Shown: positions 25,884-27,086 of the stretch, piece after piece
How positions within the stretch are numbered: the stretch's first letter is position 1
Layout: every line of letters starts with the position of its first letter
Source: Rubripirellula sp.
GTDB taxonomy: Bacteria > Planctomycetota > Planctomycetia > Pirellulales > Pirellulaceae
Assembly: GCA_012270065.1 (NCBI GenBank)
Contig: JAAXJB010000111.1
Span: forward strand, 1-49,791
Reading direction: 5' to 3'
Length of the DNA: 49,791 nucleotides
Position numbers and translations under genes: made by a program
The notes under the pieces: generated by a model
Databases searched by the model: none
Seen by the model: the letters and a program-made list of their open reading frames with translations, nothing else
Told to the model about the DNA's origin: nothing

Positions 25884-27086
25884 TCATTCACTTTTCGTAC
25901 GTCTTTCGGCAAGATATGCCTGATCGGCACTGCTGAGAATACTGATGTCCACAACTACCGTTTCACCATCGTCTTTCATCAATTGGACTTTACCAGCCTT
26001 TTGACGCAGGTATCGGGCTCTCGTTTTAAAATCGCCCTTCTGGGTTGCCCAGGTGCGAAAAGTCGATGTTGTGGGCGTCTCTGGGGGGACGTCTGGAGAC
26101 GGTGTGCTCAGGATTTTCGCATCCGGCGATACCAGTGCCAGTTCAGTTCGAGCCAATTTGTCCGCTTCTGTGTTGGGGAAACGGCGAATGACACTCGTGT
26201 AGATGCTCTCTGCACGATTGCGTATTCTCGGTGACAGCGAGGCTGCGACGAGGCGCGCTTTCACAACTGCTTCTGCCTGTTCGGACAGGTCGGCATATTC
26301 AGGCTGCTTGTTGATTTCGCGCGCGATGCTTGATGCTGAACTTTTCCACTGGGGGTATAGCTTTGAAATGGCCTCTCCCTCATGGATCGTGAGCAGTGGT
26401 TCGAACGCGGGTTCTGAGTTTGAATCCAGCAATTTGGATTTGGCCGCCGTCAGGCCCGTTTCAGTTTTCTGTTTTAATTCAGTGTAAATCTCTTTTGATC
26501 TGATGGCTGGCGTGGCATAGCTGCCAAGATTATCCAGGGGGCCGAGCTTTCCTGCTTCCGCCAGCACCACTCCTGTTTTCAGCAGGTTGCCGGACTGCAA
26601 TGCGAGTTCTGCGGCGCGGACTGTTTTTTGAAGGAAGTCTGCTTCCTGGTTGGTGAACGCCCTGCCGGATCGTTTCAGGCTGGCAAGCAGCATTGTTGGC
26701 AGGTCATCACCTCGCAAAGCTCCTGCGCCACCATAGATCTGTTCCCCGTCAGCACGGACCACATAGAGCTGTGGAATTCCGTTTCCCGTCATTGGGTATT
26801 TTCTGGACCATTGTGCCCAGTCGGGGTTGTTGTCGGTTGTGATTTTCAGCGGAACAAACTGTCCCGCGAACGCTGACAGAGATCGATCATTCTGCAGTCG
26901 ATCGAGCAACGCTACGCAAGGCGGTCAGGTCTCCTGACCTGCCATCACAAAGATCGGACGACCCGTCGTGGATGAAATCTCCAATGCCTTTTCCACTGAG
27001 GTCTGCTTGGTTTGCCCCGATAGGATTCCGGACGGCAGGCTGAGAGCTGTCAGGAAGTAAACGGTTGATTTCAGAACTGAATTCAC
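25884..27086 (-). CDS. Candidate selenoprotein: exported thioredoxin-like/SHD1
   Basis: A 400-residue reading frame with one in-frame TGA (26925-26927) at codon 54. The GTG at 27086 has an AAGG Shine-Dalgarno about 7 bases upstream and opens a signal peptide (hydrophobic run about 8-22). A thioredoxin fold follows: TGRPIFVMAGQET, then the TGA, then P-P-C (C57), and GIPQLYVV with the cis-proline loop. The TGA sits where the first Cys of C-P-P-C is expected, giving U-P-P-C. The middle is helical, and the C-terminus (about 342-392; FRTWATQKGDFKTRARYL) is an SHD1 domain. No frameshift over 346 codons after the TGA, and the next frame would end early. If TGA is not selenocysteine, this is a pseudogene or a Cys-to-stop allele. 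No selA/B/C/D in this window. Confidence 0.72.
26883..26905 (-). promoter_or_regulatory. Candidate bacterial SECIS hairpin
   Basis: On the mRNA strand the first base of this stem is 20 bases after the UGA: TCGATC, an 11-base loop GACTGCAGAAT, then GATCGA, a perfect 6-bp stem. The loop begins with G and lies 26-36 bases after the UGA. Published descriptions of bacterial SECIS elements call for an apical loop with a G in its first positions roughly 16-37 bases downstream, so it fits by inspection. The structure overlaps coding sequence, as bacterial SECIS elements do. Not energy-tested. Confidence 0.5.
26923..26939 (-). repeat. Perfect inverted repeat around the in-frame TGA
   Basis: On the mRNA strand GGTCAGG, loop AGA, CCTGACC: a 7-bp perfect stem whose 3' arm contains the in-frame TGA. 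It is not where a SECIS loop would be. It may be a pausing structure, or the trace of a palindrome-mediated mutation that could itself have made the TGA. Confidence 0.85.

What the first reader, a model, noticed from the sequence alone, without database searches (positions are those of the whole stretch)
25884..27086. Candidate selenoprotein: UGA at a thioredoxin U-P-P-C motif
Seen: one uninterrupted frame (minus strand) from GTG 27086 to 25884 except a single TGA at 26925-26927. The TGA replaces the first Cys of C-P-P-C in a thioredoxin fold and is followed by 346 good codons, a cis-Pro loop (GIPQLYVV) and an SHD1 domain. The stretch before the TGA (signal peptide, TGRPIFVMAG strand) belongs to the same fold as the part after it. 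Established: Sec commonly replaces the first Cys of C-x-x-C in bacterial thioredoxin-like selenoproteins. Inference: this is a selenoprotein with an architecture I do not know to be described (exported Sec-thioredoxin plus SHD1). The alternative is a Cys-to-stop mutation.
Basis: partly seen in the sequence, partly recalled or inferred. Interest (0 to 1): 0.92.

Follow-up and report, generated by a model that had tools for sequence, protein, structure and literature searches.

The report
Exported selenocysteine thioredoxin-like protein of planctomycetes
A planctomycete bacterium carries a gene whose in-frame stop codon is almost certainly read as selenocysteine, giving a probably exported thioredoxin-like enzyme; dozens of relatives keep the same codon, and the family is absent from the newest list of bacterial selenoproteins that was read.

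Summary
The TGA at 26925-26927 is the first position of a thioredoxin UxxC motif in a 400-codon minus-strand frame. It is not a private mutation: the same site is TGA in 16 of 18 homologous loci from 60 genomes and in 40 of 44 loci from another collection; the two sets overlap. The genome has tRNA-Sec(UCA), selA, selB and selD. Across 396 genomes of the order, 22 of 23 with the TGA form have a strong tRNA-Sec match, against 78 of 373 others. RNA after the UGA folds better than synonymous controls in TGA genes but not in four Cys genes. A confident model shows a thioredoxin domain, a helical region and SHD1. Table 1 of a 2026 review (119 families) lists no such family; NCBIfam has no fitting model. 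I read it as an exported Sec-dependent thiol oxidoreductase. Sec insertion, export and redox role are inferred; the substrate is unknown.

The parts
25884..27086 (-). selenoprotein gene, 400 residues, GTG start, terminal TGA
   Evidence: start codon not certain
26925..26927 (-). in-frame TGA read as selenocysteine (residue 54, U of UPPC)
   Evidence: TGA at the same site in 16 of 18 loci, 40 of 44 loci and 23 of 32 order-level matches, one of the 32 not read; the sets overlap
26871..26911 (-). bSECIS-like hairpin: inner stem 26899-26903 with 26881-26885; outer stem, partly conserved, 26907-26910 with 26872-26875
   Evidence: inner stem paired in 12 of 12 genus-level sequences, covariation not above shuffles; excess stability over synonymous controls in TGA genes
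27015..27086 (-). likely signal peptide (residues 1-24)
   Evidence: read by eye: Lys, hydrophobic stretch, small residues before QTKQ; several relatives end in SAQTKQ; low model confidence at residues 1-24
26757..27002 (-). thioredoxin-like domain (Thioredoxin_7, residues 29-110)
26772..26774 (-). proline of GIPQ (residue 105), the cis-proline position of the thioredoxin fold
   Evidence: invariant in 44 of 44 rows; its role as cis-Pro is recalled knowledge of the fold
26106..26705 (-). all-helical, TPR-like middle region (residues 128-327)
   Evidence: model; TPR_6 in 3 of 44 members; best Foldseek matches are YbbN-type proteins (that they are thioredoxin plus TPR is recalled)
25899..26078 (-). 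SHD1 domain (residues 337-396)
   Evidence: Pfam 37.3 bits; PDB 2hbp by sequence and by fold

Best explanation
The gene encodes a selenoprotein, probably exported. SelB carrying Sec-tRNA(UCA) reads the UGA at codon 54 with the help of a hairpin just downstream. The product has a thioredoxin fold whose active site is Sec-Pro-Pro-Cys, then a helical TPR-like region, then an SHD1 domain. Most likely it is a thiol-disulfide (or peroxide) oxidoreductase outside the cytoplasm: Sec54 attacks the substrate, the resolving Cys57 releases it, the helical region binds the client and SHD1 holds a partner. Supported by computation: conservation of the UGA, presence of the machinery, folds and co-occurrence. 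Inferred: insertion of Sec, export, redox activity and the roles of the two C-terminal regions. The confidence given is for the selenoprotein claim; the redox role is less sure (see the fourth rival).
For: (1) TGA is conserved at one column: 16 of 18 loci, 40 of 44, 23 of 32 order-level matches with one unread; these sets overlap. The other codons read at the site are Cys. (2) Own genome: tRNA-Sec 70.8 bits, anticodon tca; selB 296.7, selA 515.4 and selD 259.9 bits, all over cut-off, clustered with overlapping frames. (3) Co-occurrence: strong tRNA-Sec (E<=1e-11) in 22 of 23 TGA-form genomes versus 78 of 373 others, Fisher p 2e-13 (not corrected for relatedness, threshold chosen after seeing a gap in the scores). 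(4) RNA: codons +1..+19 after the UGA fold better than synonymous controls, mean z -1.72 in 41 TGA genes (33 below -1) versus 0.06 in 4 Cys genes. (5) dN well below dS on both sides of the TGA. (6) Model with pLDDT 91.4 and pTM 0.78 in which the Sec residue lies just before the first helix after strand 1 of a thioredoxin fold.
Against: No protein or selenium measurement. The window gene's own hairpin is only modestly stable (z -1.03 for 19 codons, +0.15 for 17), and covariation is no better than shuffles (105 to 280 of 500 do as well, by measure). Reduced synonymous change is not confined to the hairpin: the lowest windows start at +19 (12 sequences: +19..+45; 8 close ones: +19..+33), and folding is also unusually stable at codons +16..+30 (mean z -1.64), which a simple SECIS does not explain. 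In the 60 relatives the link to tRNA-Sec is weaker: 14 of 16 versus 22 of 44, p 0.015. G687 has the TGA gene but gave no tRNA-Sec (E<=1e-8) and no selB (E<=1e-60) match (91% complete). G008 gave no tRNA-Sec, selA or selB match (77% complete); G004 gave no tRNA match but has selA. Substrate, partner and exact location are unknown; the window's neighbours are shared mainly with the seven closest loci.
Confidence: 0.95

Rival explanations
1. The TGA is a nonsense mutation and the gene is a pseudogene.
For: TGA is a stop in the standard code, and the gene's own terminal codon is also TGA.
Against: The same TGA in dozens of genomes down to about 22% protein identity; dN well below dS on both sides; 346 codons after the TGA in 8 of 8 closest genes.
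Confidence: 0.01
2. Two proteins: a short one ending at the TGA and a second one restarting at TTG 26909.
For: A TTG is the sixth codon after the TGA and opens a 341-residue frame.
Against: That codon is CTG or CTC in 8 of 12 genus-level genes; the thioredoxin domain spans the TGA; the second active-site Cys, which a restart would leave out, is invariant in 44 rows.
Confidence: 0.02
3. UGA is read through as another residue (Trp, or Cys by a near-cognate tRNA), or the whole genetic code is reassigned.
For: A tRNA-Sec does not prove its use here. Some genomes with the TGA form lack detected machinery (G687, G008).
Against: TGA ends this very gene and those of three genus-level relatives (L015, L017, L020), so it is not reassigned throughout; Cys replaces it in relatives; strong co-occurrence with tRNA-Sec.
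Confidence: 0.03
4. It is a selenoprotein, but not an oxidoreductase: a selenium- or metal-binding or storage protein with a thioredoxin fold.
For: No substrate is known, and the genomic neighbours give no hint. Two distant Cys members (G449, G608) have lost the second Cys.
Against: UxxC at the active-site position, an invariant Pro, and replacement by Cys in relatives fit redox chemistry.
Confidence: 0.1

Closest known systems
Bacterial Sec-thioredoxin and Trx-like selenoproteins with UxxC (PF00085; thiol:disulfide interchange protein PF13098), as listed in PMC13188914 Table 1
   Same: Thioredoxin fold, Sec as the first residue of UxxC, Cys forms in relatives.
   Different: Here the domain is Thioredoxin_7, preceded by a probable signal peptide and followed by a helical region and often SHD1; PF13098 matches below its cut-off (17.3 versus 27).
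Trx7/PDZ domain-containing selenoprotein, NF041199
   Same: Thioredoxin_7 domain, selenoprotein; the only NCBIfam model listed for the window protein up to E 10; weakly matched by 18 of 44 family members, best E 0.00036.
   Different: Listed with CxxU (Sec second) and a PDZ domain; the window protein scores 14.7 bits against a cut-off of 300.
CnoX/YbbN (PDB 3qdn, 3qou)
   Same: Thioredoxin domain followed by helical repeats (recalled); best Foldseek matches of the model, E 7.8e-6 and 1.3e-5.
   Different: TM-scores are low (0.23-0.32), so the placement of the domains differs; here there is Sec, probable export and SHD1.
DsbH / AGR2 / TXNDC12 type thioredoxin-like proteins (2ju5, 9i3u, 1sen)
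   Same: Thioredoxin-like domain matched by sequence profile and by fold; exported or secretory (recalled).
   Different: No Sec, no helical region and no SHD1 (recalled).
SHD1 of yeast Sla1 (2hbp)
   Same: C-terminal domain matches by sequence and by fold.
   Different: Sla1 is a eukaryotic endocytic adaptor (recalled); here the domain sits on a probably exported bacterial protein.

Membership tests
Bacterial selenoprotein | In-frame UGA aligned with Cys of homologues | tested here: met
Bacterial selenoprotein | tRNA-Sec, SelA, SelB, SelD in the same genome | tested here: met
Bacterial selenoprotein | Hairpin (bSECIS) directly downstream of the UGA | tested here: inconclusive
   Family-wide excess stability and an inner stem paired in 12 of 12, but covariation no better than shuffles and a weak signal in the window gene itself; the bSECISearch program was not run
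Bacterial selenoprotein | Selenium present in the protein | not testable with these tools
   needs labelling or mass spectrometry
Thioredoxin_7 (PF13899) | score above the gathering cut-off | tested here: met
   31.9 versus 27 bits
Thioredoxin-fold oxidoreductase | CxxC/UxxC active site and the conserved Pro | tested here: met
Thioredoxin-fold oxidoreductase | redox activity | not testable with these tools
   needs purified protein
SHD1 (PF03983) | score above the gathering cut-off | tested here: met
   37.3 versus 23.7 bits
NF041199 trx7_PDZ_seleno | score above the curated cut-off | tested here: not met
   14.7 versus 300 bits
CnoX/YbbN chaperedoxin | thioredoxin domain plus TPR repeats with chaperone activity | tested here: inconclusive
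   fold match with low TM-score; activity not testable

The most novel reading that the evidence does not exclude
A selenoprotein family of Pirellulaceae and kin, missing from the review list and from NCBIfam, in which Sec is the prevailing and probably older form and Cys the derived one. The enzyme would be an exported chaperedoxin: a Sec-thioredoxin domain joined to client-binding helical repeats and an SHD1 domain that binds a partner outside the cytoplasm.
Probability: 0.3. Interest if true: 0.75.

Novelty: new variant of a known kind. Interest (0 to 1): 0.6.

Why it matters
A gene caller that takes every TGA as a stop cuts such a gene in two (as the ORF listing does here), and searches that start from Cys homologues would tend to miss a family in which Sec prevails (40 of 44 loci); both are inference. 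Planctomycetes are common in the sea (recalled); tRNA-Sec reached the threshold in 250 of 392 sampled genomes of the phylum (the threshold also admits weak matches that may be tRNA-Ser). A probably exported Sec enzyme joined to helical repeats and SHD1 gives selenium chemistry in the planctomycete cell envelope a concrete gene to test.

Tried and rejected
A UAG-for-Sec case looked possible in G679 (one search listed one TAG inside the match). Reading the locus showed TGT at the active site and the TAG elsewhere: rejected. G588 was listed with a TGA inside, but its active site is TGT.

Operon context: the window's neighbours are shared with the seven closest loci (L039-L045; one of them also with L068) and with none of the other loci compared, some of which are short contigs, so no functional partner follows from context. 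In G760 the tRNA-Sec gene lies about 490 bases from the selenoprotein gene, a single case.

The phylum-level sample held few genomes near the window (4 of 392 with the family at E<=1e-20), so the order-level sample was used for co-occurrence. Covariation of the hairpin gave no support on its own. A hairpin spanning the UGA itself, with an arm upstream of it, is seen in full only in the window among the 8 sequences folded with upstream sequence (L011 keeps part of it) and was dropped.

PMC4807772 names selenoprotein candidates of two marine planctomycetes in its table S9. I saw only passages of the main text, and supplements are not available here, so I cannot exclude that this family is in that table.

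Full report
Observation. The minus-strand frame 27086..25884 is open from GTG for 400 codons except for TGA at 26925-26927, residue 54, with a terminal TGA. Pfam places Thioredoxin_7 at residues 29-110, across the TGA, and SHD1 at 337-396, both above cut-off. The start codon is less sure: 5 of the 7 closest relatives have ATG four codons further in, where the window has CTG. The bare pattern is common: the window holds 17 TGA-interrupted frames with a Cys within three codons, 9 of them UxxC, this one included. The case therefore rests on comparison.

Conservation of the TGA. A search of 60 genomes (own genome included) found the protein in 17, with 18 matches at E<=1e-10. The active-site codon is TGA in 16 of 18 and TGC in 2 (L023, L026). 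All 12 genomes of the window's genus that have the gene (of 22 searched) carry TGA. A scan of the genome-contig collection (84,980 species) returned 44 loci, all titled as Planctomycetota or taxa within it: 40 have TGA and 4 have Cys. In an order-level sample, 31 of 396 genomes gave 32 matches at E<=1e-20: 23 TGA, 8 Cys, 1 not read; in two of the 8 Cys members the second Cys is lost. Three further matches outside the order have Cys. A tree of 40 Sec and 5 Cys rows needs 3 changes of state, 2 of them forced by well-supported branches. The root is not fixed and some Cys rows are on long or weak branches, so 'Sec first' is inference.

Machinery. The genome (7.0 Mb, 122 contigs, 99.5% complete) has tRNA-Sec with 70.8 bits and anticodon tca, and selB, selA and selD above their cut-offs, side by side with overlapping frames, selD being fused behind an oxidoreductase-like part. 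Across 396 genomes, 136 reach the tRNA-Sec threshold and their scores fall into two groups; I took E<=1e-11 as strong (100 genomes). Of 23 TGA-form genomes 22 are strong, against 78 of 373 others; Fisher p is 2e-13, without correction for kinship. The exception is G687, which also gave no selB match. In the first 60 genomes the contrast is smaller: 14 of 16 against 22 of 44, p 0.015; of the two exceptions G004 has selA, and G008, 77% complete, gave neither selA nor selB. Of 11 genomes with family members but none of TGA form (G506 not read at the site), 3 have selB above the cut-off.

RNA element. In the 60 bases from the UGA, an inner stem of five pairs is formed in all 12 genus-level sequences, one with both sides changed; an outer stem is partly kept. 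Covariation does not exceed shuffles (105 to 280 of 500 as high, by measure). Against controls that keep the protein and draw codons from the same gene, the 17 codons after the UGA have mean z -1.15 in 41 TGA genes versus -0.15 in 406 control windows, p 1e-8 without correction for kinship. In a finer scan the lowest mean is at codons +4..+18 (-1.96), and +1..+19 give -1.72 (33 of 41 below -1), versus 0.06 in 4 Cys genes. Windows further off mostly lie between -0.6 and +0.2, but a second dip at +16..+30 (-1.64, 31 of 41) is unexplained. The window gene alone is weak (-1.03 for 19 codons; +0.15 for 17). Synonymous change in codons +1..+19 is reduced (137 of 20,000 stratified shuffles as low for 12 sequences), yet the very lowest windows start at +19. 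I call this a likely bSECIS, not a proven one.

Protein. dN is well below dS on both sides of the TGA. A model from 44 sequences has pLDDT 91.4 and pTM 0.78: thioredoxin fold, helical region, SHD1. Its best PDB matches are YbbN-type proteins with low TM-scores, then AGR2, DsbH and thioredoxins; SHD1 matches 2hbp. Thioredoxin_7 is found in 43 of 44 members and SHD1 in 26 (L074 not scanned). The window's neighbouring genes are shared with the seven closest loci and hardly beyond, so context gives no substrate.

Mechanism. Shown by computation: a conserved UGA at an active site, a full decoding machinery, and selection across the UGA. Inferred: SelB-dependent Sec insertion, export by a signal peptide, attack on the substrate by Sec54 with Cys57 resolving, client binding by the helical region, and partner binding by SHD1.

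Literature. Table 1 of PMC13188914 (2026; section 7, parts 1 and 2 of 3, which hold the whole table) is said there to cover 119 families and subfamilies; none is given as Thioredoxin_7 with UxxC or as SHD1; the nearest is Trx7/PDZ with CxxU. Of PMC9312934 I saw passages and one section; of PMC2398784 12 of 23 passages; of PMC4807772, PMC5330540 and PMC1242214 passages only. Searches for SHD1 with selenoprotein or with planctomycetes found one unrelated paper and none. Searches for selenocysteine or selenoprotein with Planctomycetes, Planctomycetota, Rhodopirellula and Pirellula listed no paper that, by title, start of abstract or the passages I read, describes this family. 'Trx-like 3' of PMC2398784 (212 Sec, 183 Cys sequences) could overlap with it; I could not test that. 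Subscription papers and supplements were not seen.

Verdict. A real selenoprotein, with high confidence; a new variant of the known kind 'thioredoxin-like UxxC selenoprotein'.

Noticed in passing
L118 (G760:C82): tRNA-Sec at 2286-2384, selenoprotein gene about 490 bases away: In one relative the tRNA-Sec gene lies next to the selenoprotein gene on the opposite strand.
   Followed up: partly
L116 1176-3323 (-): selD of the window's genome is the C-terminal part of a 715-residue protein whose N-terminal part looks (by eye) like an NADH-dehydrogenase-type oxidoreductase; it has Cys, not Sec, at CRGCGCK.
   Followed up: no
codons +16..+30 after the UGA, window 26835-26879: A second stretch with unusually stable folding in TGA genes (mean z -1.64, 31 of 41 below -1), near the lowest windows of synonymous change.
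   Followed up: no
G687, locus L107: A TGA-form gene in a genome without a tRNA-Sec or selB match: missing contig, or a gene stranded after loss of the machinery.
   Followed up: partly
G033, loci L021 and L026: One genome holds both a Sec form and a divergent Cys form of the family.
   Followed up: no
(no single locus): Many planctomycete genomes give borderline tRNA-Sec matches of about 84-86 bases at 49-55 bits, perhaps tRNA-Ser; counts of Sec users at the Rfam cut-off may be too high.
   Followed up: partly
window 45233 (+): Another TGA with UxxC (LRPULVC), 49 open codons before and 390 after it; probably just the stretch upstream of an ordinary gene.
   Followed up: no
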